This document shows, piece by piece, positions 20,025 to 64,000 of a stretch of DNA of 64,000 nucleotides (its first letter is position 1; the number at the start of each line of letters is the position of its first letter). The notes below the pieces were generated by a model. It ran no database searches. It was not told where the DNA came from and worked only from the letters and a program-made list of their open reading frames with translations. Source of the stretch: Dactylorhiza incarnata (Eukaryota; Streptophyta; Magnoliopsida; Asparagales; Orchidaceae); contig JAWHQI010000306.1 in the NCBI GenBank assembly GCA_033032865.1, forward strand, positions 2,418,001 through 2,482,000, written 5' to 3'. A program made the translations under genes and the position numbers.

Positions 20025-20890
20025 CCGAGCAAGATTTCTTGATGGTGCTAAAGTGCCCCAGATCGATTCCGCTGCCGGGCTCTCATTAGCCGGTGGGGTC
20101 AGGTTGATCTCCGGAGAGGCTGGCAAGGTAACATCATGGTGCTGGAGTGCCCCGGATCGATTCCGCTACCATGCTCTCATTAGCCGATGGGGACAGGTTG
20201 ATCTACGGAGCGGCTGACAAGGTAACAATATGGTGCTGGAGTGCCCCAGATCGATTCCACTGCCGGGCTCTCATTAACCGGTGGGGTCAGGTTGATCTCC
20301 GGAGAGGCTGGCAAGGTAACAACATAGTGCTGGAGTGCCCTGGATCGATTCCGCTGTCGGGCTCTCATTAGCCAGTGTGGTCAGGTTGATCTCCGGAGAG
20401 GCTGACATGGTAACAAGTTGGTGCTGGAGTGCCCCGGAGATATTCCACTGTCGGGCTCTCATTAGCCGGTGGGGTCAGGTTGATCTCCGGAGAGGCTGAC
20501 AAGGTAACAACATGGTGCTGGAGTGCCCCAGATTGATTCCGTTGTTGGGCTCTCATTAGTCGGTGGGGTCAGGTTGATCTCCAGAGAGGCTGGCAAGGTA
20601 ACAACATGGTGCTGGAGTGCCCCAGATCGATTCCGCTGCCGGGCTATCATTAGCCGGTGGGGTCAGGTTGATCTCCGGAGAGGCTGGCAAGGTAACAACA
20701 TGGTGCTGGAGTGCCCGGGATCGATTCCGCTACTAGGCTCTCATTAGTTGGTGGGTTCAGGTTGATCTCCGGAGAGGCTGGCAAGGTAACAACATGGTGC
20801 TGGAGTGCCCCGGATCGATTCCGCTGCCGGGCTCTCATTAGTCGGTGGGGTCAGGTGGATCTCCATAGAGGCTGACAAGGTTTCTGGAAG
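20025..20890 (+). repeat. 94-bp tandem array, about nine copies, in Tat 3' region
   Basis: GGTGCTGGAGTGCC recurs at 20138, 20232, 20326, 20420, 20514, 20608, 20702 and 20796, with a diverged first copy at 20044, giving a strict 94-bp period. Each unit holds CTCTCATTAGCCGGTGGGG and GATCTCCGGAGAGG. Tandem arrays in this position are known for Tat elements. Short frames recurring on the minus strand are a by-product of the period. Confidence 0.95.
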
Positions 20891-30902: not shown

Positions 30903-32067
30903 TTAAGGACACCTCGCATTTCTTCCGGGTCCACCATAATAAAAATAATTTCCCCAGAAACGATTTCCACCACCTCTAATATCGTAACAAGTCGGGTGAT
31001 CTGCTAAGACACGAAGACCCGATAAGGGAAGCAGACTGTTGCCCCAATCAACAACCTGCAAATTCCTGAAATACGCCGCCCGGCGAAATCCTTCGCCGGA
31101 AAAATGACCGCTTCCCATTTGAGTCAACGTGTGGGGCCCGGTGGCTCGCGCGTTGACTATTTCGCCGCCGAACTGGACCATGCTCGCGCGCAGAGCTAAG
31201 TGGCTGAACAGGTTCGAAGGCCAATAGCCTACCAAAATGCCCGGCCCAAACTCTAGCCACCAATGCCCATGCTTTGGGTCCTGAAAAAATTTATATGAAA
31301 GTATATTATATATTAGTATCAAATGACGGATGCATATTTTTTTTCTACGTGGGCGGAGTAAAAACAAATTTGAAATCTTATATTAATATTTTTATATTAA
31401 TGTAACATTTTTTTTATATTATATTCCTATTTTAATGAATTTTTTTACAATATATTTTAATATTATAAAATGTTTATATTTTTAATAATTTTTTTGTACA
31501 ATATGACTAAATATATATATATAAAAAGTCAACATTTATAATGAATTTTTATGTACAATGACTAAACATAGAAAAAATAATTACATTTTTAATGATTTTA
31601 TAAAAATGTAATTTTACGAATAAATGTAGAAAAAAATATATCTATTTTCAATGTGGATGGCCACTCACATTGGGCCCTATGTGGGTCAGCCCTGCCATCA
31701 TCAAATGCACCATACCAAGCTAATATCATAATTGTAATAAAAAAGTATTATGACCTATGATTGTCATATGATAATTTTCTTATAATATAATTGTATAAAG
31801 TACATGAAATTTGTTGACACAATGGTTTCCTTTTGTATGATCATTGATTATTTTTTATTATTTTATTAACTCTATATATTTGGTTTTTTACCGCGACTTT
31901 TCCTCGAAGTTTGAGTAATTACAACTTGCACCCCTCTAACTTTCGAAATTACAATCAGCATCCTTCAATGTTTGCATTTCATAACATTCATGCACAAAAA
32001 GACCCTCCTGAAGATTTACTCAAATGGGATACTTTTGCGCCTGGAAGTTGTGAAATGTAAACATTGA

Positions 32068-35100: not shown

Positions 35101-38100
35101 CCTATTAGACCCAAAAGCCCCACCATGGAGTGGTCAATTTGACCAAATTGACCAAAGTCAACTTTCCCCCAATTTTGGTCAAAATCACACTTATTGGCTA
35201 AATTGGCCCAATGAGGGAATCACCATGACCTAACCCACATTGGGTGGTGTCACTAGGTTCAAACCAACACATTGGACCAAGCCACCCCTCAGTTGACTAA
35301 GTCAAACCCCCAAGTCAACCATAGTCAACATAGGTCAAAAATGGCCTAAAACATGAAAATCAAGTGGGCTAACTCAATAAACTTGAGTCAAGACCCAAGC
35401 CCAGCCCATCCAGCAGCCCACATGCACAAAGACCTCCCATGCCCTCTGATTTTGAATGGTGGAGACATGCATGGGGGTAGGAGGGTAAAATCCCCAATTT
35501 TTAGGAGAGAGAAAGTGAGGAAAAGAGGGAATGCAAGCCAAGTGGCTCTTCTCCTCTCTTCCCAAGCTTCCAACTGATCTCCCCAGAACTTTAGCAGCTG
35601 AATTACTGGGATGGGGGACACATGGAGCCAAGGAGGAGCTTCCAATGTTGGAGGCCGAAATCCCCCCTATGATAACTCCTCATACAGCCCTCCTCACCCA
35701 TTTTACTCATTTTCATTAGCTTCAGAAGCTTGAAGAGAGCTTAAATCGACTGTTAGATCATTACATTTGGTGGAGAAATGAGATCGGGAGCAAGCTCGCC
35801 GGAGGAGATCACCGCCATGGCCGCCCGCCGCAATTGCCGCCGCCAACCTCCATTAAGGTCCGGTTTCTCCTTCTCTCCCCCTGTGCTAGCTTCCTAGATC
35901 CTTAGGAGATGAAAACCAAGTTTAATTCAAGCTCTATATACGGACAATAATGGAGATTTAGGTAAGAAATGCCCATGCTAGAACTTCTCGTCTAGGGCAT
36001 TATTTGCCATGAAATAGATCTCAATCAACTCTTCTCTTTAAAACGAAGCTATAGGAACTTATTTCGTGCAAAATGATGGACTATGGAGGGAGTATTGGCC
36101 AAAATAGGTTAGAGATCATCATTCCCGTCGGCTGGAGGAAGAAGACGAGCAGGAGCCGTCCGATTTTGCGCCAAGATCTGTGCAAGATTTTAATATTTCA
36201 TTTTAATAATTATTCAAATCTGTCACAAACCGGGCAGCACTTTCAATCTAATTTTTGAACCCCTTAGAGTCCAAAAATAGAAAAATGTCCAGAGATAACA
36301 TTTGTAGCCCTATGGGTCTACTTTCTGTAGGATTTGAGATCAAGTGATTTGGAGCTCTACAGCTCCTTGTAGAGCCATTCTACTAAGACTGCTCATTATG
36401 TCTATTAGCAAACCATAATATTTCTGCCTAGGATTTTAATGTACTTTGCATGCTATTTTTGAAGGCCTTAGAGGCCATATCATGAAAAGTTGGCAGAGAC
36501 AACATTTGTAGCCCTATGGGTCTACTTTCTGTAGGATTTGAGATCAAGTGATTTGGAGCTCTACATCTCCTTGTAGAGCCATTCTACTAAGACTGCTCAT
36601 TATGTCTATTAGCAAACCATAATATTTCTGCCTAGGATTTTAATGTACTTTGCATGCTATTTTTGAAGGCCTTAGAAGCCATATCATGAAAAGTTGGAAG
36701 AGACAACATTTGTAGCCCTATGGGTATACTTTCTGTAGGATTTGAGATCAAGTGATTTGGAGCTCTACAGCTCCTTGTAGAGCCATTCTACTAAGACTGC
36801 TCATTATGTCTATTAGCAAACCATAATATTTCTGCCTAGGATTTTAATGTACTTTGCATGCTATTTTTGAAGGCCTTAGAGGCCATATCATGAAAAGTTG
36901 GCAGAGACAATATTTGTAGCCCTATGGGTCTACTTTCTGTAGGATTTGAGATCAAGTGATTTGGAGCTCTACAGCGCCTTGTAGAGCCATTCTACTAAGA
37001 TTGCTCATTATGTCTATTAGCAAACCATAATATTTCTGCCTAGGATTTTAATGTACTTTGCATGCTATTTTTGAAGGCCTTAGAGGCCATATCATGAAAA
37101 GTTGGCAGATACAACATTTGTAGCCCTATGGGTCTACTTTCTGTAGGATTTGAGATCAAGTGATTTGGAGCTCTACAGCTCCTTGTAGAGCCATTTTTCT
37201 AGGACTACTCTTTATGTCTATTAGCAAATTTGGGTGGAGTGAGCCCTATGCCTTGGGGTTGACCCAATGGCTTGAAATGCTGGACATGGATCCTTGGCAG
37301 CAATATGCCTTCCCAAAGGTTGTTTGGGATTTTTGGGTACAAAATCCCAAGATATGGAATTTACTAAATTACCCCTAATTTAGGTTATAAAATAAAAAGG
37401 CGGTCATATGAACTTGGAATAATATGAGACTTAGGATCGGGTGCTTTTAGAATAATATGGTGCTATAATAGTTTTCCCGGAATTTATTGAAGTCTTAACA
37501 TAGCACTTGTAGTGTAAACCCTTATACGCACACCAAATGTATTAAATGATAATTAAGGGTAAATATTACTTGGAATAATATGAGACTCAGGTTTTGGTGT
37601 TTTTAGACCAGCGTTATGTCATGGTAATTTTCCCTGAGATCACTGAGATCATAATCAAATACTTGACGTGTAAATCTCTATTTGCACACCTCCTATCTTT
37701 AATAGGAACTATGACTTAGGATTCCCTAGAGAATTTATGAAATTAGGATTTGAGATTGTTAGATCACTACTCATTGCGAACCTATGGTGATAATTGGAAC
37801 TCGTTTGGATATGATGTGATCAAGATCGCACCATAGGAGTCTAATCTAGATCAACCTTGTTTCGGTCTGCGAATAGTGAAACTGATTTACATGAATTAGA
37901 CCACCACTGACCTTCACACGTAGAACTGTTAACTCTTAGTAATTATGAAGGCTCAGGTCACTTGGAAGAGCATCTCTAAGGGCATCCTGGGAAATAAGGA
38001 TTGGGGCGCGTTTAGCAAAGCAATAGGAGTGTGGGTCCAAGTAAGGTTGAGAATGTTATTTGAATGTGAGCAGTTCCTCGGTGAAGAAAGGGGACTCGAG

Positions 38101-41100
38101 TTTAAAATGTGACGAAGGGAGAGTCAGCACCCGGTCACAGCTGGAGGTGTTGGAGTTCAAGGAACTCCCCCACTCCTAATTGCCAAGTTTAACTCATCTT
38201 AGAGATGTAATGTAATTGGAGAGGAAAATGGGGGTCAAGTAAAAAGGGGTAGACACCAACAAGATTAAGTACCTTGGGAATAGGAAGTTCGGGGTGTCAG
38301 CCTGCCACACTTCCTAGTACCGCTGCGTGCCCCTCACAGGGTAACCCTCCGGATGTCCAAGGTTAACCATAAAGCTTCTAAGTTCAACTAAATCATAGAC
38401 AAGACTAGTTAAGTAGGAGAACTCGGCAAGTTAACTTCCATCCCGAACCGTGACGTTATTTATAAGAATGGACTGGGATAGTCTAGCGAGCGGTAAGCTC
38501 GTAGTTTATATATAAGACTAGTGTAGTCTAGCGAGCGGTAAGCTCATAGTTTATATATAAGACAAGTGTAGTCTAGAGAGCGGTAAGCTCGTAGTTTATA
38601 TATAAGACTAGTGTAGTCTAGCGAGCGGTAAGCTCATAGTTTATATATAAGACAAGTGTAGTCTAGAGAGCGGTAAGCTCGTAGTTTATATATAAGACTA
38701 GTGTAGTCTAGCGAGCGGTAAGCTCGTAGTTTATATATAAGACTAATGTAGTCTAGCGAGCGGTAAGCTCGTAGTTTATATAAGACTAGTGTAGTCTGGC
38801 GGGCGGTAAGCTCGTAGTTGGTATATAGACTAGTGAAGTCTAGCGAGTTCTAGGCTCTAATTTATAAATGCTGATGTAGATGTGCGAGCTGGAGGCTCGG
38901 TTGTAAAAGGCTAACTTATGTTGCTTGTGAATGAGATGTGGTGGGTCTCCGAATCTGTCTTAGTCGTCACACCGACAGCAGTTCGTTGACTCGGCAGTGC
39001 TAGAGGTTTATTAGGGCCAGGTTGTTTTACTGCGCGTCCGATGGGACGAATTCCCTAAACCCTGCCTGGCCATTTCAGTTTAGTACGCAGGAGCTCGTGA
39101 GTACCGGGTACCGGTATCACAGCGTACGTTTGGGCCTAGGTCTGGTAGTGTGACTTACCCACCTAGGTGAGGAGACGCCCGCTCCTCTGCCACCGTTTGA
39201 CCACGACGGGAGGTGCCCGAGAGGTTAGCTACCTCCGAAAAGTGGGAACTAAAGGTCTGTACGTACAGAGTCGTGTGTGTGAGTTGCATGTGTATGAAAT
39301 AATAATACAAACATTGCATCATTGCATTGCACTTCATAGCATAGCATTTCTGCACCAACTGAGACCTCATCGTATAAATTAGTGTGGGCTCTTTTATACG
39401 ATGAGTTTACTTCTTGCCAGATCTCTTAGCTTATGTGCTATTGTGTGTGCATATAAGTTAAGGTTACTTTCGTAGCTACTCCTTAATTATACCGCTCTTT
39501 TACTTATACTGCTCTTTTACTTATACTGCTCTTTTACTTATACTGCTCTGTTACTTATACTGCTTCTTACTTTCGCTTATATACATACTCCTGCTTGGGT
39601 AGATATGCTTTCATTACTTGTTTAGTACCTTTATACTTGCTAGTCTCGCCATTGCCACCTGCTTTTGATTTACCCCTTGATGTCCTCCGCTTCCTCCTTC
39701 CACACGGTGCCTAGGAGTCGCGGGGGGAGGCGGGGACAAAATCGGCTTAGTCTTTATGACTAACGGTCGGTTGTGACCGTAGGTACACGAGGTGATGGAA
39801 CCCCAGAGAAGAGGAGACAGGACACAAGGAACTTATGCCGCGCGTTACTTCTACTACAATACAGGTGTTCGAGAGTTGAGAACTGATTAGCTTCCGCATA
39901 GATGTAGAGTGAGAAAGTTTATATACTTTGCTTGGATATGTACTGGGCTTAAGCCCTTTCTCTCTTTTAGTCTTTTCTCATCAAGGACATTGTAAGCATG
40001 TACTTCTGTATTTAATGTGATTTGTGGGCTTGTTGCTTCTATTTGCTTCTATTACTCTGAATTGTGGTTGGCCTAGATGATGTTGATTAGCCGGCAGGAT
40101 CGGCGTATTGTGGCGGGGACCATTGGGTGTAATGGTCTCGCCGCAAGACGGCGATTCTGGGCGGTAAGACCCGATTTAAAAGCAAAAAAAAAAAGGAGGG
40201 TCTTACAGTTAAAATATATTTTTGTATTTTTGCTAAACATTGTTTGTATAAATAATTTAGTTTATTTTTTAAATATTAGATCTGTAAATAAATTGTGATT
40301 AATTTGATGGTAAAATGATAAACTAGAGCATTATTATAAAGAAAAAAAATACATTTAGGCTCAGTTTGGCGCGACGTTTTTGCTTCAGTGAGTTTGAACA
40401 AAAATGTCATCATCATAGAATATATGTTTGGCATGACAACGGTTATGACCACGACCCAGAAAAGAAAACTAGTTTTGATCGCATTAAAATGGATGAAATT
40501 CCTTAAGTGAGGTTGAGCATTCACGGATGACGGTTCATAACCACCGCACTCACGAATGTCACCACCGTGCCTGAAACGGCTTATTTGCTCCGGTCAGTTT
40601 GGACAAAAATGTCACCATGGTAAAATGTATGTTCGGCAAGACACTGGTTATGACCGCCACCAAGAAAAGAAAACTATTAAAGTAACTTAGATGAGGTCGG
40701 GCGTTCACACGAACGATGAGTCATAATTATTGTGCTCACGACCGCAACCGCCGCGCCAAACAAAGCATTAGTGTCATAATTATGGGTTTTTTATTTCTCT
40801 TTTCCGGTCTCAACTAATTTCATTAAATTTTTAATTGTTAATAGAATTGGAGAAAAATAGGAAAAAATAATAAAAATAAAAAAAATATTTTGCTTATCTG
40901 ACCTGCCATCCAGCTTCAATGGTGTTCAAATCAACCCCGAACGAGCCCGATATGACCCAAATTTGTGACAGGCTGAACTCAGCCCGAGTCGCAACATGTG
41001 GGGCCCACACGCTCAAGCTAGCCTTTGCCCCGTAGTACTCCCCGTTTGAATATCCGACGGCATGCTGCCAAATATTTCACAATTAAAATCAATTATTATA

Positions 41101-43809
41101 TATATATAATTATTATTTATTTGATCATAAAAAAATCGAATTAATGAACAAAATTAAACAGTTTGATTCATTAATATGTTTAATAGAATATAACAGGAAT
41201 AAAGATTGCATACACCTATAATATTTCAAGTCGTATAAATACGAGTCTTTTAAGATATTCTCAGATTTTTTTGGCTATTTGCAGCCCCTCACTATTTGCA
41301 GAACCCAAAGTTATAATTGTGTTGCTGATTTGCGATGGGGCGACTGGAGCGTGACGGTAGACGGCGAGGAAGACTTCTCTTTTTTGAGCGGCTTCCCCCG
41401 GCTTCGATTCCAGCATATTGGCTGTGAGGCCAACATAGTTGCTGATTTATGTGCTCGTTTTGCCCTACGAGAAAACTTTGTATGGCTAGATGTTGATAGC
41501 ACCCAGACTGAATTTGTCGAGCTTGTTCGTGCAAACTTGGATGACATGCTATAGTTATATTTTCCTTTTTTATTTTTAATTTCATGCTATATGCACTTTT
41601 CAAAAAAAAAAAAATTTAATTGTACCAAGAGATGCTATTCGCATACCAAATATTTAAATTTCTATAAAAGTATATAATGATCGAGCTCCTAATTCTCTCA
41701 TCTTTAAATCAGGAAAATATCTTAATTGCAACTTTCAAATACAAACCCATATGATTCCATTTGAAAGCATCGTTTGTTTCCACGTTTTTTCTCCAATGGC
41801 GGTGGGCGGAAAACATCAACACTGAAAAAATATATTTGGTAAAACTCCTTTCTCCATCCCTCCATTCCCAACGCTCTCGTTCCCAACGCTCCAAAATGCC
41901 ATCGTCGAAACAAACAGAGCCTAAAACTTTGTTTGTTTTTTTTTTAATTTGAAACTAAGGCTCCGTTTGGGGAGACTTATTTTCACCGGTCAAGCGGTTA
42001 CGACCGCATGAATCGGACCTTAATTTAAGATCCGGTTCATGCGGTCGTAACCGCTAGACCGGTGAAAATAAGTCACCCCCAAACGGAGGCTAAATTGATA
42101 TAGCCGAGGTAAAGCTCCATCAAACAATTTGCTCATTTGGAATTCGGGTAATAGACTCGTATAATCATGATATTCTCATAAATTAACGATGATCCATTAA
42201 CAAATACAAAGATGAAATTTGTATTAAACAATCAATCCTAAGAACACAGATGAAGCCCTCGCGTGCGAACACAACAATAAGGTATACCTAGGCTCCGTTT
42301 GACGCGGCGTTTTTTCTCCGGTGAGTTTGGACAAAAAAAAACATCATCGTCATAAAATGTGTGTTTGGCATGACAACTGTTATGACCGCCGTCAAGAAAA
42401 GAAACTAGTTTTGAACATAAAAGTAGATGAAATTCCTTAGGTGAGGTCGGGCATTCAAAGGTTCATAAACACCGCGTTCACGACCGCCACAGCCAAATGG
42501 CGACCTAGTTTTGGTTTAGGCTTATGATGAAAATTGATTATGTGGATGGTGGAATAGAGCAATTAAATGGAAAAGAACTCTCGGAGAACATAAGAAGCAT
42601 AGACAGGAGATCGATCATCAACCTCTCGATTACTCTAACAGCGAAGTGGCGCCGGCGTCCTGCCCATCTAAAGTCGGGGATGAAAGCTGAAGTAACCTCG
42701 ACGAAGATAAAGCGGAATAATGGAGAAAACATAGGTTTAGGAGATAAATTGGCTCAGTTTGTTTTGGCGTTTTTTCTTCATTGATGGTGGGAGAAAACGC
42801 CGGCTGAAAAAACGGTTTGGTAAAACTCCTTTCTCCATATCCAGTGTTCCAAAATGTTATTTTTGACCTTCAACGTCAAAGTTGCCTCCTGCCTTCATTC
42901 CCAACCCTACAGCCGAAACAAACGGAGCCAAAAAGATGGAAGAAATGGTAGAGAAGGACTCACCTATGGCCACCACCGGAGAGATGAGCGCAAGCACGAG
43001 GAGAGCAGCTGCTCGCCGCCTGGAATCTTAAGCATGGCGGTCGGCAAGGAGCACGGCGGGGTTTTGGTTTTGGGTCTTGGGCGTGGGATTTAGGGTGGGG
43101 TGCGTTTAGGTGTTTTGGGGGTGTTGAATAGCCAAAAATATATGGTCTGCGAATATCAACTTAAGAGAGAGAGAGAAAGAGAGAGAGAGAGTTGTAGTTG
43201 ACAAGTCACTCGATTGTGAACTGTGGAGACGTGAGAATGCAAAAGAATGGTTTTAAATGAAACACCAAATTCTTTATAGTTGTAATCAAAACGGAATATT
43301 TTGTTTTCATTGGATTGCTTTTAAAAAAATAATAATAATTCTTCCCTCAGATTAAACGACTAACCTCATGTCCGCCGCCGCCGCCGGCGGCGGAATCTTG
43401 CCAGGCTCTACCAGCGGGCTTTCTTCCAAACCTCCCAACCGCTCTCGCTCTCAACACATCTTTGTAAGTGGTTCTTCTAACAGCGACTGTTCCATCCGGG
43501 CACTCCTCGCCGGCGCTTCTCCACGTCTGCATTTCTTCCGCCACCTCGCCGGCGATCTCATTTCCTTTCGGCCTCTCCGGCGGTTCCTGCAACCAAAGCC
43601 GCAATCTTTCTTCAATCGGCTCCTCCGCGTGAACCCAAAATCTGAAAATCCAGTGGTTCGTACCATTAATGGCTTCTGCCCTCTTAGTTTTAGATGATCA
43701 AACGCCGGCTGGAGATGAGTTGGAATGCAATCTATGACATCGCCGTCAGAACTCTGTAAAAAACAAATCTTTTTCCAGACTCTCGCATTGCTTCAAAAAA
43801 CAGGGACAT

Positions 43810-44610: not shown

Positions 44611-45011
44611 AATTGTTATAAGCATATCAGTTTTGACTATTCGCACATCAATTTCTATGAATTCTTACACGCCTTTTGAAAATACGTCCTGTACATGCAT
44701 TTTTAGGAAAAGTGTTGACGAGATCTATAATTTTTGTGTTGAACACTTTTCCTAAAAATGCATGTACAAGGCGTATTTTCAAAAATTCGCTAAAAATTCA
44801 TTATAGTTACGATCAGGGCGACAATACGCCTCGTACGTGCATTTTTAGGAAAAGTGTTCAACGCGAAAGTTGTAGATCTCGACGAGATCTACAATTTTCG
44901 TGTTGAACACTTTTCTTAAAAATGCATGTACAAGACGTATTTTCAAAAGGCGCGTAATAACTCATAGAAATTGGTGTGCGAAAAGTCAAAACTGGCGTGC
45001 TTATAACAATT
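44611..45011. repeat. 401-bp palindrome with two inner hairpins
   Basis: The outer arms start AATTGTTATAAGCA and end TGCTTATAACAATT. Inside lie two separate hairpins (about 44675-44784 and 44822-44944), each with GCATTTTTAGGAAAAGTGTT arms. It is a foldback element or MITE of a type I cannot name. Confidence 0.85.
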
Positions 45012-46189: not shown

Positions 46190-47399
46190 TAGGGATTAAG
46201 TAATTTACTCATGAAAGTGCACATTGTGCCTCTGAGAATCCTCTAGAGGGGGGGGGGGTGAATAGAGACTTAAAATATTTCTATCTTAACTGTGTAAACA
46301 ATAAAATAAACTAAGGAATTATGCTCAATAAAATTACAGGCAGAATAATATTAGTGCAAGAAATAAATTGTTGAATAAAAGGAATTGAGACATCACAGAA
46401 AATAAGCAACCAGAAGACACAAAGATTTTATAGAGGTTCCCCAAAATGTGGGTAGTCCTCTTGTAACGCCCCTGATTTTCGTTAATTATTTTACGTGTCC
46501 GCTGTGACGTAATTTTGGCATAAGGGCGTTACGTCAGCTCGTCTAGTAGTGTGTTGAGCCTTAGCTTAGTTAAAGTATGTCTTGTAGATCGAGCGTGCGA
46601 GATTTCGCGTCGTTTCGAGTTAAAGTAAAGATTTTGGGTGGATATCAAGATTTTAGCTTCGGGAGGCTTTAGCCCGAGTTTGGCCCGTCGGAATTGAATT
46701 CTGACTTCGCCGTTGGATTCGTAGCGCCGTGTTTCAGTTAAGGTGCGAATTTCGTAGAAAGCTGAGGTGATCTAGTTTCCCTCGCGGTTTTAAGTGAATG
46801 GGGGAATTAATTAATTAATAAATTAATAAATTAATAAATTAGGTTTTTATATAAAGCCTAAAAATCTTCTTCCCCTATTCATCTTCTTCCTCCCTCGATC
46901 AAATCAGCCGCCGAGCGAAAGGGCGAGTGCGGAGCTTCGAGGAGCGTTCGATCGGCGATTTCTAGGGCTGTAGTAGTCGGAATCGCGTTTGGAGAGTAGA
47001 TTTAGAAAGCTCTCGGCGAGATCTTCGTTCTAGCGGTAAGCTTTTCCCGTTTTATGGAATTTTTGGAGTTAGGGTAGTGACCTAACCCCTTCTTTCGACC
47101 CGAAAACTTCTTTCGACCCGAAAAGTTTCAGGAATCTGTGCTCGTGTGTTTCCCTAGCCGATCCATAGCTTTCGGAGCGGAGATCTTCGAGTTTGCAAGG
47201 TTTAAGGCAAGTGGCTTCCTCCTCCTCTTTGTTTGGTTAAGTCGTGGTTTTTCTTTCTCCTGATAGCTGCTTAGTGAACTGTGGGCTCGTGTTTCGAGCG
47301 TCTTGTTTGATAGATAGAAAACCCTAATCTTCCCCCATCCGTAGTGTCAGAAATTTCCTCCCGGAAGGCACCACCGTTCCCTAATTTTATCCGTTGATT

Positions 47400-47605
47400 G
47401 TCCTTCTCGAGAAGTCCTGGTAGTTTTCGAGAAGTTGTTTTAGCCAAGTTTTTTAGAAGACCCCTTGATTTCTCGAGAACTTTTCCCCGCTGGAACCTCT
47501 ATACTTCTCGAGAAATCCCTGCCTTCCTCTCGAGAAATCAAATTCCATCTCTCGAGAAATCCTTTTTTCTCTCGAGAAGTTCCTTGTAGTTTTCGAGAAG
47601 TCCTA
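47400..47605 (+). repeat. TCTCGAGAA-rich stretch
   Basis: About ten copies of the palindromic word TTCTCGAGAA or one-base variants at irregular 15-35 bp spacing, inside the solo LTR leader region. Confidence 0.8.
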
Positions 47606-47654
47606 AATTTTGATGTGATTTTGTGTGGTTTCTGTTGGTGGGATTTCAAAATTT

Positions 47655-47805
47655 TGGACGGGGCTCTGCCCCGCACCCCGCAAGGGCTCTGCCCCTTGAC
47701 CCCGCTCGCAACCACTGTCAGGGGCGCTGCCCCTTGGACCCCGTTAGGGGCTCTGCCCCTAAGACCCCGCCAGGGGCGCGGCCCCTTGGAACCCCGCCCG
47801 GAACG
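47655..47805 (+). repeat. GGGGCTCTGCCCC repeats
   Basis: Inverted-repeat words GGGGCTCTGCCCC, GGGGCGCTGCCCC and GGGGCGCGGCCCC recur with ACCCCG spacers. They are strong hairpin formers. Confidence 0.85.
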
Positions 47806-50617
47806 CATGTGTTTTCGTTGATTTTTTGTGTTTGAAGCTCGTGTCCCCTCGGGTGTACTTGGATGATTGTCAGTGACCCTTCGGTGCTCCTGATCTCGAA
47901 TCCCTCTCGTTTGAACCTCTTTTTACTCGTTGTTGTCTGTTAACATTTGAGTTACTCTTATGATTCATATTGATCGATGTGTACTTCGTCTTGACCCTAT
48001 TTCTTAGGGCCTTCCAGTGATTATCCTTTCGGGCAGCGTCCCGTGTTTAATTAAAATTTAAGTAATAAGAACTACTGTCTTTAGCCTTACACAGTAGTTG
48101 TGTTTGGGGGACAGTGGGGGGGAAAATGTTATAGCCTTGCACGGTAGTCGTGTTTGGGTAGTTGGGTCTAGTGGTACCCCCACCTGGTTTTGGGTTTTGG
48201 GTAGCGGAGGTAGTTAACCGCTCCCGTATAATTTGAGCTGATCAGTCTCTTTAATTGATGAAACTAAATAAATGAACGTGTTGTTCCTCTTTTGGTATTT
48301 AGTGCACTTGATGCTTGTTGACTCTTTGTTTAGAGCTCTCTTTCGGTAAATTTGGCTTGGGTTGGTACCCTTTATGTCTTGCTTGTTTTTCTTCTAGTTT
48401 TCTGCCACTTGTAATTCCTTGCTGAGGCGTTCTTTGTTGTATTGAATGCCTCAGGTTCAGAGCCGTAGCGGCTAGTGGTGTAGCCTGAAGTTCAGAGTTT
48501 TAGTAGTTGTTCACCCCGCTGCTGCGAGGTAGTTGTTTTTAGTTACTTCTTGTGCTCAGACATACTAGTTGGTGCCAATGGGTTAGTGTCATGTTGTTGA
48601 CGCCCATTGTGCCCATTTTTATACTTTATAGTTTATTTGCCAGATTATGCCACTATCTTTAGATCTTGTGTATCTTACCCTCTGGGAATGATTTATGTTA
48701 GGTGCACTATAGTTATAAAATGGTTTTTCTTCATCCTCATTCCATTCTTTCTAACTGAAACCCTTAACTTTAAAGTCGCCTAAAAGTATTTTCTACTCTT
48801 ACAGTACGCCTAGTTATGTGCATATCATTTACTTCATGCTCCGTCGTTTGCATACATGTAGGACTTTAAGTAAACTAAATCAAGTACTTTCCGCTGCAAT
48901 TATATATACTTTCTCGGTGGACTAGTTGATCCACGAACTGAGAGACACAGTTCTTATCTCAAAACCCCTAATAAATGATTTCAAATGATGACTTATCATA
49001 TAATCATGTTTGTTTAGTTAAGTAATAGGTTCCCGCCTGAGCGTCTACAATTGTCTCCTGTATGACGTGGCATCATGACGTGTATTTTCTCTTACTCTGA
49101 TATTCTTAAATTCGGAGAAAATGCGGGTTGTGACACCTCTCTTCTACCACCTGGTAGGATTGCACCACCTGTGTCTGAGTCTTTTGACAAGGAGACTCTC
49201 AGAACCACTGATTTTTGATAAGGAGATCATGAACCAACCAGATCTTTTGATAAGGAGATCTTGAACCAACCAGATCTTTTGATAAAGAGATCTTGAACCA
49301 CTGAATCCTTTGGAAGAGCGATTCTTAAAACTCTTTTACATGAGATAATGAGAAGGAGAAAGAGGAAGGGGAGAAAGGGAAGAATTCTGTACTCAGAATT
49401 CTTATGAAGCTTGTATGAAGAGCAGCTTCTTGATTCTTTCACTAGATCTGCTTATGATTAACTCCAGCTTATGATAGTGATGTATTGCAAGAGCTATGGA
49501 TGTCAGATCATTTCTCTTTTCACTGATTGAGATCTGGCTGCTATATGATTGTGATGAAGAGCAGCCTTCAGATCTCCTGTTCTATAAGATGGAGAGCAGC
49601 TGTTTTTTCTTCTCTGCATATTCTCTATTAGGGTTCTGGAGGAGGAAGAAGAAGAAAGAGCCCCTAAAAGAAAACTGTCAACCGATTGTGTTGAATACAC
49701 TATTTTTCTCTTTCTTTTCATCCCTTTTATTGCCCCTGTTCAATTTGAATTTGTTTCCTTTACTGGTAAGTCCTGAAAAAGTATATTTGTATGAACAATT
49801 ACTCTTTTCCTTCTTTAATTCCCGACCCGTCCACCAACAATAAGCTTATTTCCAAGAAAGCTTTTGTGTCCTGTCTTAATTTTTCTTTCCATTTGAGGCA
49901 ATTAATGAGTCATTGGGGGAACGGTCTTGAGTATTGTGGGTCATGAGAGAGGGTCCAAAATGACAGCTGAAAATGTTTCCTTTTCAGACTGCATTCGACA
50001 TAGCATCGAGTTCTCTTTCTCTCTTATCGACGCACCTTCGAGTTCTTGTAAGAGCAGCTTTGAATTCATCCTTCCTCTGATTGAACTCTGCTAGTCGACG
50101 TTGCGTCGATATCTTATCGACGTAACCGTCGAGTTGAGGGCATGACTCTGAACTTCATTATCAGCGTCGAGATGAAGTCGACGTTGTGTCGACTTTAGAT
50201 GGCTTCGACAGATATTTCCTTCTGCGTTGAGTTGAAGTAGAAGTCGCGTCGACTTCTTAAGGTACTTCAATAGGTCCATGGCCACTACGTCGATATATAT
50301 TCGACGTAACGTCGACTTGAATTACTTCGACAGAAGGGTTAGACCACTTGGACTTCTAGTCAGAGTAGCGTCGACATTAACTCGATGTTGCGACGATTTC
50401 TATTCGACCCAAATGTTAACTTTGCCCAAGTTTTGCTTCTCTTGATCAGGTCTTGACACCCTAAGTCGAGTGTGACATCCTAAGACATCTAATGACCAGA
50501 TTACCCTCACTATACAATGGGTAATTCAACCTAAGGAATAAAATCACTTTTAGATAATTTGTTGAGTTAAATCAAAGGGGTTTTCCGCATAATCAAATGT
50601 TTACACTAGAGTTTTTA

Positions 50618-51648
50618 ACCTACGCGCGAGTTTTTCGCCCGAGCGTGCGTTTTCCTGCAGGGTGTTTTTCGTCCGGGCGCGTTTATTTCACCCGGGCGCA
50701 TATTTTCGCCCGGGCGTGATTTTTGGCCCAAGCGCAATTTTGTCGCCCGGGCGCGTTTATTTCGGCCTGACGCGATATTTTCGCCCGGGCGCGATTTTTT
50801 CGCCTTGGGCGCGATTTTTTCGCCCGGGCGCGATTTTTTCGTCCGGCGCGATTTTTTCGCCCGTACGTGATTTTTTCGTCCGGGCGCGTTTGTTTATTTT
50901 CGCCCGGGCGCGATTTTTTTCGCCCGGTAGCTTTTATTTCCCCGGGCGCGTTTTATTTCTCCCGGGCGGGATTTTTTTGCCCAGGCGCGATTTTTTCGCC
51001 CGGGCGAGATATTTTCGCCCGGGCGCAATTTTTTCGCGCGAGCGCGATTTTTTCGCCCGGGCTCGATTTTTCGCCCGGGCGCAATTTTTTCGCCCGGGCG
51101 CAATTTTTTGCCCAGGCGCGATTTTTTCGCCAGGGCGCGATTTTTTTCGACCGGGCGCGCTTTTTTCGCACGGACGCGATTTTTTCGCCCGGGGGCGATT
51201 TTTTCGCCCGGGCGCGATTTTTTCGCCCGGGGCGCGATTTTTTCGCCCGGGCGCGATTTTTTTCGCTCGATCGCGTTTATTTCGCCCGGACACATAATTT
51301 CGCCCGGGCGCGATTTTTTGCCCAGGCGCGATTTTTTCGCCCGAGCGCATTTATTTCTCCCGGGCGCGTTTTATTTCTCCCGGGCGCGATTTTTTCGCCC
51401 GGGCGCGATTTTTTCGCCCGGGCGCGTTTATTTCGCCCGGGTGCGATTTTTTCGCCCGGGCGTTATTTTTTCGCCCGGGCGCGATTTTTTCTCCCGGGCG
51501 CGCTTTTTTCGCCCGGGCGTGATTTTTTCCCCCGACCGCGATTTTTTCGCCGGACGCGATTTCGCGATATTTTAGCCCGGGGGCGCGTTTTTTGACCGGT
51601 CGCACGTTTTTCGCCCGGGCGCGCACTTTTCGCCCGGGCACGCGCTTT
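50618..51648. repeat. CpG-dense 19-bp satellite with CCCGGG core, about 50 copies
   Basis: The consensus by eye is CGCCCGGGCGCGATTTTTT. Each unit has a 10-bp palindrome CGCCCGGGCG, several CpG sites and a T-tract. Some units carry GTTTATTTC in place of GATTTTTTC. Because 19 is not a multiple of 3, translation gives a 19-residue repeat in any open frame, and several long frames exist on both strands; they are by-products. The flanks are AT-rich. Confidence 0.95.
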
Positions 51649-51850
51649 TAAAAATTTTAATTCTAGAAAGCCAATTCCATCGTGCAGCCGAACAACTTAC
51701 AGATTTCAATTCCAATTCTGTTCACTGAATCCATCCTGCAACCGAACAACAGAATTGGTTTTATGCACAAAATCAATTCCTGCAGATATTGGTTTTCTGG
51801 CCAAAGCTAATTCCAGAAAGTCATTACCTGCGCGCCAAACGGACTCTTAT
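51649..51850. mobile_element. Probable MITE end beside the array
   Basis: It holds repeated TGCAGCCGAACAAC and GCAACCGAACAAC words, AATTCC motifs and an end GCGCCAAACGGACTC, as in common plant MITE termini. The partner end was not found on the left of the array. Confidence 0.4.
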
Positions 51851-54110: not shown

Positions 54111-54621
54111 TTTTATTTTAATTTATTAAAATTTTGCTCAAATTTAATCCCAAATCGTGGGATTAAGTTATCTATTCTGGTATAAATAAAAAAAAACGGA
54201 ATTAAATATTTGAAAAATTACGTATTTCGGGCGGACTTCACAGCTTGCGAGGCTTCATCGGATGGGCAATATGCTAACTCCGCGTCGTGTATTGTAGGGG
54301 TACAAGATTCAAGTTCTAATATTTTAACATAGTTTTAGGTCGCCCCCTAGTAGGTTTATGAGACCTACGAAAAAGTGGAGAGAGCGGTTTGATCCGACGG
54401 CTGATGAAATATCATGCCAGATTCGACGGCCGTAATCATTTCAATGAGTTTAAAATTCATGAATATAATTTAATATATCTTTACATATGATATATATATA
54501 TTATGAATCTGTTTTGGGCGTCTGATGCTGATGAGAAAGCTGCTGTGAGAATATGGCTGTCAGAAAAAGCTTCAATGAGAAAGTGTAGACTGTTCAGATG
54601 CAGCTGTAGAGCGCACCTAGC

Positions 54622-54731
54622 GAAAATGTGTGCTCGGGAAAAAATGCGTGCCCAGCCAAAAAACACACACTCAACCAAAAACGCGTGACCCACAAAAACG
54701 CGCGACCAGAAGATAACGTGTGACTCACGAA
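54622..54731. repeat. Decayed 18-bp tandem repeat, six units
   Basis: Units read GAAAATGTGTGCTCGG, AAAAATGCGTGCCCAGCC, AAAAAACACACACTCAACC, AAAAACGCGTGACCCAC, AAAAACGCGCGACCAG and ATAACGTGTGACTCACG. Pattern and length match the reverse complement of the 50.6-51.6 kb array unit (AAAAAATCGCGCCCGGGCG), with CG changed often to TG or CA. Confidence 0.65.
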
Positions 54732-54790
54732 TAGAGCTTGGATGCGGGTGAAGCCCGCTCGAAAGCATCGAGCACGGGCGAAGATGCTCG

Positions 54791-54803
54791 TGTCTATATA
54801 TAA
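54791..54803 (+). promoter_or_regulatory. TATA-box candidate
   Basis: TCTATATATAAGTAGG lies about 60 bp after the decayed 18-bp repeat and a GCGAAGATGCTCG segment. It could be the core promoter of an LTR or gene. No coding region can be supported downstream. Confidence 0.45.
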
Positions 54804-55318
54804 GTAGGTGGATGAACGGTGGAGTCCACGATTCATCTGTCGAAGTTATAAATTTTTTTTGCGACAACTCTGGTGGATGAAAAAGCTACATTCCAACCGC
54901 CAGAGCTATCTTTTAACTGTTTAGGACAGCTATGTATGCCCAGCTTCTCGAAAACATGTTTGATAGAGCGGCGTTTTGGGTCTATTTGAGAAGTTGTAAG
55001 GGGTCTACTTCCGCGGTTCATAAATCACACATTTTTTTTTCTGCCGCCCTCGGCCCCGATAGGCGAGAGTTCTTCTTCGATCCAGGTCAAGTTCCATTCG
55101 ATCGACAATCACACTGGTTCCGCAAGAAATTTCTCCTCAAATTGTTGCTCTCAGGTTGGCCGGCGGGGTCGATTTCGAGAGAGGCAAGTAACATCTCTAC
55201 CATTCTCGATCTCCCCTTCGCATTTCGCAGTGGCTCATCTTCATCCTTTCGCAACGGACTCCCATTTATTTCTTGCCACTGATATCTCGTCTCCTTGACA
55301 CCTACTAGGTGTTAGCAT
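54804..55318 (+). other. Leader-like sequence, no gene supported
   Basis: Balanced composition, CG-containing, with no long open frame of known family. The stretch 55125-55195 resembles 56085-56160 on the other side of the solo LTR. Confidence 0.35.
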
Positions 55319-56052
55319 TGTTGGGTTTTAATATGAGGGTTTTCCTAGTTACTTTAAATCCTTATCAAGATCTATTCCTATGCAAGAAATTAAACTTAAT
55401 GCGCTGCGGAACTTACTTTCCATCTCCATATGTTGTCAATCAAAGAGCTTCCAAGGTTCTGGGTTGATACGCTCCTGGTCTTGACTTGTGTTGTTGGCTC
55501 TCGAGTCCTTCCAAGAACTTGCAATCCTTTTCTCTGGCTATCCTGATTATTATGACAGAGTATCTTGTCTTCAATGGAGCAGACAGATTTCTTTTTGGGT
55601 GATCGCAAGCCTTGGAGACTCAGCCCTTATATAGCAGTGCAAAAGCCCAATCCTAGGGCAATCAAAAAATTGGCTAATACTTGGAAAACCAGTTTTTTTT
55701 TGGAAAGAAATCCAAAATTTTGGATTTCAAGGATCTGAAATCATGAACTTTCCATAACAAAATAAATCAGAATAAATTATGATGTCCTTATTTAGCCTAT
55801 ATTTATTACTGCTACTATTTTAATCAACTATAATCGGTCCATTAACAATTATAATTGATTACCATTATTCTATATGTATTCATATCCAAATCCTTATTTA
55901 AATACGTATCATGCCATGACTTAATTAATCACATTGTTTGGCATATTTTAATAATTACATAAACGTAATCTTGTGACAGTATTTGATATCATAATCATAA
56001 TGCACGTATGTCCAACTTAATTATTATAATTTAGACGTCTCTAAATCCAACA
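55319..56052 (-). mobile_element. Solo LTR, 734 bp
   Basis: TGTTGGGTTTTAATATG to AAATCCAACA, with AGCAT duplicated at 55314-55318 and 56053-56057. A minus-strand TATATAAGG (about 55627-55634) suggests it points left. No internal region is present. Confidence 0.87.
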
Positions 56053-58220: not shown

Positions 58221-59524
58221 TGTAAGATCTCTCTCCCGCACCTGGAGAGCTTCCGGATCTTATGCCCAGAACCGCCGCCTTATGGTGACACTAACACCCG
58301 GATTAGCTGCCTCCGTAAGACGCCGATCCTGCCGGCAGAACGATCAACAGGCCAACAAGAGCTAAGAAGGAAAATAAACAAAACCAAGTCCACAATCACA
58401 CATTTATACAACAAAATATAAAAAGTCTATCAATGAGTATAACAAGTAAAGGAGAGAAAGGGCTTAAGCCCGGTACATATCCAAGCTAAGTATAAAAGAA
58501 AATAAACTCTCTCACTCTACATCTATGCGGAAGCTAAACACTCTCAACTCTCGAACACCTGTCTTGTAATAGAAGTAAAGCGCGACATAAGCTCCTCAGG
58601 TCCTGTCTCCTCTTCTAGCCGGGGCTCCACCTCGGGTACCTACGGTCACAACCGACCGTTAGTCATAAAGACTAAGCCGATTTTGTCCCCGCCTCCCCCC
58701 GCGACTCCTAGGCACCGAGCGGGAGGACGAAGCGGAGGAAAAACAAGGGGTAATAGAACAAGGCAGGTGACAAATGTCTAGACTAGCAGTGTATATAAAT
58801 ACTAAGCAAGTAAAGGTAACAATTATGTACTAACCGGAGTAAATATGACAGCAAATAGTAAAAGACAATGCAATATAAGAAGCAGGTACAAGAAATAAGG
58901 ACAGATTAAGAGCAACTACGAAAGTAACCTTAACTTATATGCACACACAACGACACATAAGCTAAGGGATCTGGCAAGCAATAAACTCATCGTATAAAAG
59001 AGCTCATACTGATTTATACGATGAGGTCTCTGTTTATGCAGAAATGCAATGCTATGATATGCAATGCAATGATGCTATGTTTGTATTATCATATCATACA
59101 CATGCAACTCACCCACACGACTCTGTACGTACAGACCTTTAGTTCCCACTTTTCGGAGGTAGCTAACCTCTCGGGCACCTCCCGTCGTGGTCAAACGGTG
59201 GCAGAGGAGCGGGCGTCTCCTCACCTAGGTGGGTAAGTCACACTACCAGACCTAGGCCCAAACGTACGCTGTGATACCAGTACCCGATACTCACGAGCTC
59301 CTGCGTACTGAACTGAATTGGCCAGGCAGGGTTTAGGGAATCCGTCCCGTCGGACGCGCAGTAAGACAATCTGGCCCCTATAAAACCACTAGCACTGCCG
59401 AGTCAACGAACTGCTGTCGGTGTGACGACTAAGGCAGAACCGAAGACCCACCACATCTTATACACAAGCAATAAGCATTAGCCATTTACCACCGAGCCTC
59501 CAGCTCGCAAATTAACAATTAAGA

Positions 59525-60065
59525 AGTAGAGCCTACCGCTCGCTAGACTGTATTAGTCTTATATTCTAAACTACGAGCCTACCGCTCGCTAGACTATACC
59601 AGTCTTATATTTAAACTACGAGCATACCGCTCGCTAGACTACACTAGTCTTATATTTAAACAACGAGCCTACCGCTCGCTAGACTACACTAGTCTTATAT
59701 TCAAACTACGAGCATACCGCTCGCTAGACTACACTAGTCTTATATTTAAACTACGAGCATACCGCTCGCTAGACTATACTAGTCTTATATTTAAACTACG
59801 AGCCTACCGCTCACTAGACTACACTAGTCTTATACTCAAACTACGAGCATACCGCTCGCTAGACTACACTAGTCTTATATTCTAAACTACGAGCTTACCG
59901 CTCGCAGGACTATCCCAGTCCTTCCTTATAACCCGAGCCTACCGCTCGCAGGACTATCCCAGTCCTTCCTTATAACCCGAGCCTAATGCTCGCAGGACTA
60001 TCCCAGTCCTTCCTTATAACCCGAGCCTAATGCTCGCAGGACTATCCCAGTCCTTCCTTATAATC
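59525..60065 (-). repeat. 45-bp tandem array, about twelve copies
   Basis: TACCGCTCGCTAGACTA recurs about every 45 bp. It is homologous to 38470-38845 read in reverse. The last four units are a GGACTATCCCAGTCCTTCC variant that is not repeated in the other copy. Confidence 0.92.
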
Positions 60066-61019
60066 CGTCTGGTTGGGATGAAGGTTAACTTATCCAGTTC
60101 TCCTACTTAGCTAGTCTTGTCTATAATTTAGTGGATCTTAAAAGCTTGGGGTGAATCCTGGACTTCCCGCGGGTTACCCGGTGAAGGGCTCGCAACGGTA
60201 CTAGGGAATATGCTGGTGACTAAAGCCCAAATTCCCCTTTCCACGATGTTTATTTCATTTTGTTACTACCCGTTCTTGTATGCCCGTTTGCTCTCTAGTT
60301 GCTCTAAAATCCTATGGTGGATTACTTTTTCGACTCGGGCAGATATGTGTCGGTGATCTACTGAACACCGAACCATGTCATTCCTAGTGTCCGACTATTC
60401 CTTGATTTACCTCTCAACCACCATTTTCACTTCTGGGTAAGTCATCACTAGCGGTGGTGATCATAAGGTAGGGGGTCCGAATCTATGTTTCAGTTTCTAC
60501 TGTCTGCAGACCGAGGTGAGACTGAACTAAGTTGACTTTCAAGGCGTTATCTTAACCCTACCATGTCTAAGTGGGTTCCAAGTCTTGTCCTAAGTTCTCA
60601 ATGGGCAATGAACCAGAACCCCAAGTCTTGGTCTTCCTAGTTTTCTAGGGGGTGTTGTACGTTGAGTATCAGTTAGGGGTCTCTTTAAGTTCTACATCTG
60701 AGCCTCAACGAATCCTGGGATATTTACTACAGTCCCATGTTGGTCTAAGCTCCAGATCCTAAGTTTTGTATTAACCATGGAGTAATATCCTTAAATTACT
60801 ATTTATTATATCTGCTAGACGTTCCCAGATTTTCCTACATCCTTATGTCCAAATCACTAAACCCACCAGATGCACTTTTATACACGTCTCACTAGATGTG
60901 ACCTAAAAGAGGCTACCCCTAACCAAGGTCATGAAATCAGTAGAATTGTGAAGGTGACATAAAGGGCTACTCTATACATGTTGATTATTCTCGAGGTATG
61001 AATTTAACCTAGGTGAATC

Positions 61020-61740: not shown

Positions 61741-64000
61741 TTCCTCCATAAATGGTCCTAGCCAAAATAAAATCAACATGCAAGGAGATGCTCAATAATT
61801 ACTTACAAGGTACCTTTATGCATGTAACAAAGTGTGACCCCAAGTGGGATTATTTAAACAACTAAATACTATAACCCACCATTTCCAATAAACTAAAGGT
61901 GATGCATTCATTCACATCACATGCATGGGTAAATCTCTTGGCAAGGTTGAAGCCATTGAGAGAGAATCTTCACACTCAAGTTTTTGCTAAATGCACACCT
62001 ATTCATATACACTACTTTGCATGCATGTGAAAAACCCCAAAACTCAAGGGGCCATGGTGTTGAGTCTCCTAGCATCCATGGGAATAAAATCAGTGACATG
62101 CAAGGTGATTTGCACCTTTACTTTCACTAAAGCCCTAAGAGCTAAAATTGCTAATTGCACCCCATTAACCCCATTGAGCTCTAAACTTAAAATTGAGTCC
62201 CATGAAGATCTACTCATGCAAATGGGATGAAACTTAAACCAGAGGCTATGCATGCCCTAAAGGGGCCATCACCAAAATTAGTGATCATTAGGAGTTATAT
62301 AACTCCAAAAATCCCATTTATTTACTTTTCTAGGTTTTGAACAAAACTATAGAAAAAGTATCTCCTAAAAATCTGATATTCAAACCTAGGCTAGGTATAG
62401 GGTACTTGCATGTATAGCCAAAATATCAACTTCATCAGATTTGCCATTTAAGAGTTATACTACTATAAAGATCTAGTTTGAGTTTTGACCATCCTCACTA
62501 GAATGAGTGATGTGGGCCCCATACTTAACCAAATGCCCTGATTTCACTTCCATTGGAAAGTAGACATCAAGGGATATAAATGTTATCTCTGGCCATTTTT
62601 CGATTTTTGGAATCTAAGGGGTTCGAAAATTAGAATGAAAGTGCTGCCCGGTTTGTGACAGATTTGAATAATTATTAAAATGAAATATTAAAATCTTGCA
62701 CAGATCTTGGCGCAAAATCGGACGGCTCCTGCTCGTCTTCTTCCTCCAGCCGACGGGAATGATGATCTCTAACCTATTTTGGCCAATACTCCCTCCATAG
62801 TCCATCATTTTGCACGAAATAAGTTCCTATAGCTTCGTTTTAAAGAGAAGAGTTGATTGAGATCTATTTCATGGCAAATAATGCCCTAGACGAGAAGTTC
62901 TAGCATGGGCATTTCTTACCTAAATCTCCATTATTGTCCGTATATAGAGCTTGAATTAAACTTGGTTTTCATCTCCTAAGGATCTAGGAAGCTAGCACAG
63001 GGGGAGAGGAGGAGAAATCGGACCTTAATGGAGGTTGGCGGCGGCAATTGCGGCGGGCGGCCATGGCGGTGATCTCCTCCGGCGAGCTTGCTCCCGATCT
63101 CATTTCTCCACCAAATGTAATGATCTAACAGTCGATTTAAGCTCTCTTCAAGCTTCTGAAGCTAATGAAAATGAGTAAAATGGGTGAGGAGGGCTGTATG
63201 AGGAGTTATCATAGGGGGGATTTCGGCCTCCAACATTGGAAGCTCCTCCTTGGCTCCATGTGTCCCCCATCCCAGTAATTCAGCTGCTAAAGTTCTGGGG
63301 AGATCAGTTGGAAGCTTGGGAAGAGAGGAGAAGAGCCACTTGGCTTGCATTCCCTCTTTTCCTCACTTTCTCTCTCCTAAAAATTGGGGATTTTACCCTC
63401 CTACCCCCATGCATGTCTCCACCATTCAAAATCAGAGGGCATGGGAGGTCTTTGTGCATGTGGGCTGCTGGATGGGCTGGGCTTGGGTCTTGACTCAAGT
63501 TTATTGAGTTAGCCCACTTGATTTTCATGTTTTAGGCCATTTTTGACCTATGTTGACTATGGTTGACTTGGGGGTTTGACTTAGTCAACTGAGGGGTGGC
63601 TTGGTCCAATGTGTTGGTTTGAACCTAGTGACACCACCCAATGTGGGTTAGGTCATGGTGATTCCCTCATTGGGCCAATTTAGCCAATAAGTGTGATTTT
63701 GACCAAAATTGAGGAAAAGTTGACTTTGGTCAATTTGGTCAAATTGACGACTCCATGGTGGGGCTTTTGGGTCCATAGCATTCCTTGGAGTGTTTATCGT
63801 CTATTGGTGGAATCAATTTGTAGATGTGAGTTCATGTTGAGCTAGTTTGACTTAGGTTGATTTGAGTCCTATAGGAGATCACATGTGAGTTCACCTAACC
63901 CTATGTGTTCTAAGGTTGCAACCTAGCACAAACTCACAACACTCACCACTTGTCTCATCCTAGTTGAGGTTAAGGGGTCTAGAAGTTCTGAGGATGTTAC

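What the first reader, a model, noticed from the sequence alone, without database searches (positions are those of the whole stretch)
50618..51648. CpG-dense 19-bp satellite of palindromic CCCGGG units
About 50 units of CGCCCGGGCGCGATTTTTT form a 1-kb block far richer in CpG than anything near it. Each unit joins a 10-bp palindrome to a T-tract, so the array is a regular run of CCCGGG sites and bendable A/T tracts about two helical turns apart. Plant repeats usually lose CpG by methylation and deamination, so retention suggests youth, lack of methylation or selection. I know of no named family with this unit.
Basis: partly seen in the sequence, partly recalled or inferred. Interest (0 to 1): 0.75.

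Follow-up and report, generated by a model that had tools for sequence, protein, structure and literature searches.

The report
CpG-dense 19-bp plant minisatellite with partner
A one-kilobase run of about 53 copies of a 19-base, CpG-packed DNA word sits among old transposable elements in a plant genome, with a small decayed mirror-image partner three kilobases away, so it looks like a minisatellite grown from transposon DNA rather than a chromosome-scale satellite.

Summary
The array is real: about 53 head-to-tail units of CGCCCGGGCGCGATTTTTT at 50608-51650, 88.8% identical to consensus; 37 matches with up to 3 mismatches against none in 100 shuffles. It is the most CpG-dense stretch per 500 bp, but three shorter TCGA/GTCGAC blocks in or beside copia LTRs, one next door, have CpG enrichment of 1.67-2.11 against its 2.03. 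I add a degenerate array of the same motif and near-19-bp spacing, in opposite orientation, at 54611-54789: score 52, next best in the window 24, and 0 of 2000 local simulations reach it under each of four nulls. Most likely this is a minisatellite expanded by slippage or unequal exchange from a cluster of CpG palindromes in transposon DNA. T-tracts are not helically phased; 11% divergence argues against youth; the lack of CpG-specific decay is no evidence of lost methylation, because several control repeats also lack it. Assembly artefact is unlikely: longest exact internal repeat 37 bp. Host element, copy number and methylation are unresolved; the whole-genome search did not complete in 25 tries.

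The parts
50608..51650 (+). Main minisatellite: about 53 units of CGCCCGGGCGCGATTTTTT; more homogeneous core, degenerate edges
   Evidence: outer limits by eye
54611..54789 (-). Degenerate partner array in opposite orientation; A tracts at 54623, 54639, 54658, 54677, 54694 (spacings 16, 19, 19, 17); 17 CpG, o/e 1.32
   Evidence: wrap-around score 52 vs next best 24 in the window; maxima of 40 simulated strands: mean 26.1, sd 3.7, largest 42; 0 of 2000 local simulations reach it in each of four nulls, largest 44; CpG count
49990..50405 (.). Neighbouring CpG-dense block of TCGA/GTCGAC motifs (19 TCGA, 6 GTCGAC; o/e 1.67), on the U3 side of an old copia LTR as I place it
   Evidence: LTR assignment of 46270-49790 by alignment, of 49990-50588 by position and by eye
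46212..50588 (-). Old Ty1-copia-type LTR, interrupted by a solo LTR at 46462-49135; ends about 20 bp before the array; no convincing target duplication
   Evidence: local alignment with the copia LTR 11792-13379 scores 179 vs a maximum of 43 in 20 shuffles, covering about 46270-49790; ends and strand judged by eye; nested LTR with TSD CCTCT
54795..54804 (+). TATA-like TATATATAAG, 5 bp beyond the outer end of the partner array (by eye)
   Evidence: sequence

Best explanation
A local, transposon-derived minisatellite. A short cluster of CpG-centred palindromic motifs separated by T tracts lay in the non-coding regulatory or terminal part of a transposable element, with a counterpart cluster in inverted orientation 3 kb away. 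One cluster expanded by replication slippage and unequal exchange to about 53 units, which homogenised its middle and left the edges degenerate; the other stayed short and decayed. Original role, inferred: the palindromes were binding sites for a dimeric factor (transposase-type or transcriptional). Present function: probably none beyond being an expandable, CpG-dense tract. Shown: tandem structure, edge decay, inverted partner, TE-rich setting, other CpG-palindrome blocks in LTRs of the window. Inferred: membership of one element, factor binding, mode of expansion.
For: The first three complete units on the left carry 5, 8 and 3 mismatches and the last four on the right 4, 6, 3 and 4; of the 46 between, 38 carry 0-2 and 8 carry 3-5: the pattern expected of unequal exchange. 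The inverted partner has the same motif and near-same spacing and exceeds chance. CpG-palindrome blocks recur in the copia LTRs. The left flank is a copia-type LTR, and retrotransposon domains were found in 6 of 10 ORFs scanned. Minisatellites inside plant retrotransposons are a known kind (PMC3305785 abstract).
Against: No terminal inverted repeat plus target-site duplication encloses the two arrays, so one element is not proved. No open frame of 150 aa or more lies between the arrays, shorter ones were not scanned, and no transposase was seen. No second copy of the element is known, and the genome could not be searched. The array lies outside, not inside, the copia LTR as I place its end. 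In the first single-unit profile scan the partner's best hit (15.0) only just passed the best null score (14.6). Right-array units resemble edge stretches (48, 48) little more than core stretches (46, 46, 40) of the left array, so direction of descent is open.
Confidence: 0.5

Rival explanations
1. A stray block of a larger dispersed or chromosomal satellite family, seeded here by transposition or reinsertion of a circle.
For: Regular head-to-tail structure and homogeneous core; a related block occurs 3 kb away.
Against: Only 1 kb; 11% divergence from consensus; the partner is very degenerate and inverted, and edge units grade into non-repeat as in local growth. Genome copy number not testable here.
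Confidence: 0.2
2. Subterminal repeats of one non-autonomous DNA transposon (CACTA-, hAT- or foldback-like): the two inverted arrays are its ends and bind its transposase.
For: Inverted orientation of two arrays with the same motif; a CACTA start lies at 50604 and a like sequence on the other strand at 54864 (10 of 13 matches).
Against: That terminal match is weak: 18 sites in the window, this one included, match 10 or 11 of 13, and it has no 3-bp duplication (by eye). No convincing TIR with 8-10 bp duplication was found and no direct repeat of 6 bp or more between 50540-50640 and 54770-54900.
Confidence: 0.2
3. A functional anti-silencing or regulatory platform: the motif array is bound by a protein that keeps it unmethylated, as VANC proteins do at VANDAL elements.
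For: VANC targets are dense, same-orientation, tandemly multiplied short motifs in non-coding TE DNA (PMC5735166, passages). No excess of CpG transitions (22/416 vs 15/212).
Against: No VANC-type gene or MULE identified here (not searched specifically); several local control repeats also lack CpG decay; the motif differs from the published YAGTATTAY.
Confidence: 0.07
4. Assembly artefact.
For: None found; no reads were available to test it directly.
Against: Units are individually distinguishable; longest exact repeat 37 bp, shorter than ordinary sequencing reads.
Confidence: 0.03

Closest known systems
Retrotransposon-associated minisatellites of soybean Gmr9/GmOgre (PMC3305785, abstract seen)
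   Same: Short tandem units in non-coding TE-associated DNA of a plant, many units per locus
   Different: There five interleaved families lie between coding region and LTR of an element with more than 3,200 intact copies; here one unit, one locus seen, host element unproved, strongly CpG-rich
VANC-target tandem motif arrays of VANDAL elements of Arabidopsis (PMC5735166, passages seen; PMC10398659, abstract seen)
   Same: Short motif repeated in one orientation at high density in non-coding sequence, growing by tandem repeat formation
   Different: Motif YAGTATTAY, not a CpG palindrome; protein partner and loss of methylation shown there, nothing of the kind shown here
Foldback transposon Tetris of Drosophila virilis (PMC4079207, search listing only)
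   Same: A transposon that supplied building blocks of an emerging satellite; inverted ends with tandem repeats (recalled)
   Different: No TIR or duplication found here; partner array short and degenerate; no evidence of a genome-wide satellite
CpG-rich TCGA/GTCGAC blocks of the copia LTRs in this window (unnamed)
   Same: CpG-centred palindromes, o/e 1.67-2.11, in TE control DNA
   Different: Different hexamer, irregular spacing, 239-416 bp

Membership tests
Minisatellite (tandem units of roughly 10-60 bp, kilobase scale; definition recalled) | Head-to-tail units of that size over about 0.5-20 kb | tested here: met
   19-bp period, about 1.04 kb
Satellite DNA (large, high-copy arrays) | Long arrays at many or large loci | not tested
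   The genome search unanswered in 25 tries (first, last); only 1 kb seen
TE-associated minisatellite | Array lies inside a defined element shared by several copies | tested here: inconclusive
   Adjoins a copia-type LTR and has an inverted partner; no element ends found
CACTA / hAT / foldback element | Terminal inverted repeats with target-site duplication enclosing both arrays | tested here: not met
   No convincing TIR with 8-10 bp or 3 bp duplication around the arrays; decayed or displaced ends would be missed
VANC-target array | Binding by a VANC protein with local loss of methylation | not testable with these tools
   No methylation or binding data; motif differs from the published one
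VANC-target array | Dense same-orientation short motif in non-coding TE DNA | tested here: inconclusive
   Density and orientation met; TE residence unproved
Phased A-tract curved DNA | A/T tracts in phase with the helical repeat | tested here: not met
   Resultant 0.07 at 10.5 bp and 0.05 at 21 bp

The most novel reading that the evidence does not exclude
CpG-centred palindrome arrays (CCCGGG here, GTCGAC in the copia LTRs) are a recurrent feature of TE control regions in this plant: an arms-race device in which TE-encoded or host dimeric proteins bind multiplied CpG palindromes and keep them unmethylated, analogous to VANC but in other element classes and at methylation-sensitive sites.
Probability: 0.06. 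Interest if true: 0.65.

Novelty: new member of a known kind. Interest (0 to 1): 0.3.

Why it matters
If the inverted pair proves to be one element, it gives a case of a minisatellite caught at birth: a seed cluster and its expanded twin in one locus. Its 175 CpG in 1 kb also make a simple test of whether dense CpG palindromes in plant TE control regions escape methylation.

Tried and rejected
Array inside a copia LTR: the LTR end, compared by eye with the LTR at 11792-13379, lies at about 50588, 20 bp short of the array, and I see no polypurine tract between; not excluded if that end is wrong. Target duplication for the older copia LTR: two 5-bp pairs that look accidental. TIR/TSD scans around both arrays: nothing convincing in a long list of mostly low-complexity hits. 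Shared motif ATTACTTCGACAGA/ATAACTTCGACAGA outside both arrays: suggestive, but single and found after the fact. Rfam: 0 matches at gathering score in the window. DNA folding of about five units (97 nt): z -1.23 on + and -2.44 on -, a modest excess only. Viral contig scan for a 17-mer of the unit: 6 stretches with one match each, about what chance gives by my estimate. Protein search with the Neprosin ORF: 118 hits; those that bear names are flowering plants, species of the window not resolved. Helical phasing, youth and CpG-decay arguments: see the observation check and full report.

Full report
Check. The array is as described. Units read CGCCCGGGCGCGATTTTTT; a wrap-around alignment of 50629-51648 gives 53-54 units with 88.8% identity, 9 of them without mismatch, 3 of those with one inserted base. 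Tandem Repeats Finder reports period 19. With up to 3 mismatches the unit is found 37 times in the window, all in the array and on +, against a mean of 0.00 in 100 shuffles. CCCGGG occurs 30 times where 0.13 are expected. CpG observed/expected is 2.02 and GC 58%, against 42% for the window.

How special is the CpG richness? By 500-bp windows the array leads with 88 and 61 CpG, the next highest being 45. By enrichment it is not alone: TCGA/GTCGAC blocks in the copia LTR pair (12972-13210 and 16036-16276) reach 2.11, and the block beside the array (49990-50405) 1.67. CpG-centred palindromes in retrotransposon control DNA therefore recur in this window. The first two blocks are copies of one LTR, so they are not independent cases.

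Age and decay. Units differ from the consensus by 11%, so the array is not very young. At consensus CpG positions transitions make 22 of 416 cells, at the other C/G positions 15 of 212 (Fisher p 0.37, summed by hand from the table). The same comparison by pairs of 36 units gives a CpG/non-CpG transition ratio of 0.63. Eleven control comparisons in the window gave 2.27, 1.40, 1.03, 0.55 and 1.00 for five repeat pairs and 2.27, 0, 0.96, 0.19, 0 and 2.24 for six tandem arrays. Both zeros rest on 4 and 6 CpG cells, the 1.00 on one CpG transition and the 2.24 on four; two of the arrays overlap and some lie within one of the pairs. So there is no CpG-specific decay in the 19-bp array, but its absence does not single the array out. 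Unit-pair counts are not independent.

Helical phase. T tracts have a resultant of 0.61 at 19 bp but 0.07 at 10.5 and 0.05 at 21. The array is not classical phased A-tract DNA.

Assembly. The longest exact repeat inside the array is 37 bp, so the units can be told apart by ordinary reads; no read data were available.

Partner array. A single-unit profile first showed hits on the minus strand at 54762 (15.0), 54694 (9.1) and 54640 (5.6); the best null score in 20 simulations was 14.6, so this alone was marginal. A wrap-around local alignment of the consensus against the window without the array gives 52 at 54611-54789 on minus; the next best on either strand is 24. Forty simulated strands had a mean maximum of 26.1, sd 3.7, and a largest of 42. 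Of 2000 simulations of the local sequence under each of four nulls (two regions, Markov order 1 and 2), none reached 52; the largest was 44. Its A tracts are spaced 16, 19, 19 and 17 bp. This is a degenerate relative in opposite orientation, 3 kb away. It stands 5 bp before a TATA-like TATATATAAG on + at 54795-54804 (read by eye).

Setting. Left of the array is an old copia-type LTR, about 46212-50588: its stretch 46270-49790, read without the nested LTR, aligns with the LTR at 11792-13379 at score 179 against a maximum of 43 in 20 shuffles; its ends are judged by eye. It is interrupted by a solo LTR at 46462-49135 with TSD CCTCT. A second solo LTR lies at 55319-56052 with TSD AGCAT. Pfam on 10 of 25 long ORFs gives gag, integrase, reverse transcriptase or RNase H-like domains in six (one of them below its curated cut-off) and a Neprosin domain in one; three had no match at E 0.001. 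The Neprosin ORF has 118 hits at 44-82% identity, the 82% over 58% of the query; the named ones are flowering plants.

Mechanism. I favour growth of a minisatellite from a motif cluster in transposon control or terminal DNA. The first three complete units carry 5, 8 and 3 mismatches and the last four 4, 6, 3 and 4; 38 of the 46 between carry 0-2, as unequal exchange predicts. Element ends could not be found, so residence in one element is inference. Binding by a dimeric factor is inferred from the palindrome alone.

Known kinds. Minisatellites within plant retrotransposons are published (PMC3305785, abstract). VANC proteins bind dense tandem motifs in VANDAL transposons and induce loss of methylation (PMC5735166, passages; PMC10398659, abstract). 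Nothing here shows such a protein. Searches for this unit in print: the 10-mer core is in 23 papers, of which 15 were listed; no title concerns a repeat family, and one abstract mentions a 120-bp VNTR of a human promoter. Word searches showed no such family in the titles and abstract beginnings listed (48 listed 12 of 34 papers, 62 listed 10 of 18). These searches cover open-access papers only.

Limits. The genome search was unanswered in all 25 tries, so copy number, other loci and species are open; I had no other plant DNA collection to search.

Noticed in passing
38313-40173 and 58254-60205: Inverted pair at 81-83% identity with 45-bp tandem repeats inside; TCTTACA at 40201 and TGTAAGA at 58221 suggest two LTRs of oppositely oriented gypsy-type elements (type from recall) rather than one transposon.
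   Followed up: partly
35108-36352 and 62529-63773: Inverted pair at 97.9% identity outside the LTRs above, perhaps internal parts of the two elements.
   Followed up: no
12972-13210, 16036-16276, 49990-50405: CpG-dense TCGA/GTCGAC palindrome blocks in or beside copia LTRs, o/e 2.11, 2.11 and 1.67.
   Followed up: partly
46462-49135: 2.67-kb solo LTR (TG..CA) with 5-bp duplication CCTCT nested in the older copia-type LTR.
   Followed up: yes
55319-56052: 734-bp solo LTR TGTTGGG..CCAACA with duplication AGCAT.
   Followed up: yes
44611-45011: About 400-bp stretch that is 75% self-complementary over its whole length (inner arms 83-88%), MITE-like.
   Followed up: no
41958-42091: 134-bp palindrome, 90% self-complementary, with GGCTCCGTTTGG-type ends.
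   Followed up: no
20042-20881: 94-bp tandem repeat, 8.9 copies, in GC-rich DNA; here CpG sites do show excess transitions, ratio 2.27 over 8 units.
   Followed up: partly
30903-31382: 159-aa open frame with a Neprosin domain; 118 related proteins, 44-82% identity, named ones from flowering plants.
   Followed up: partly
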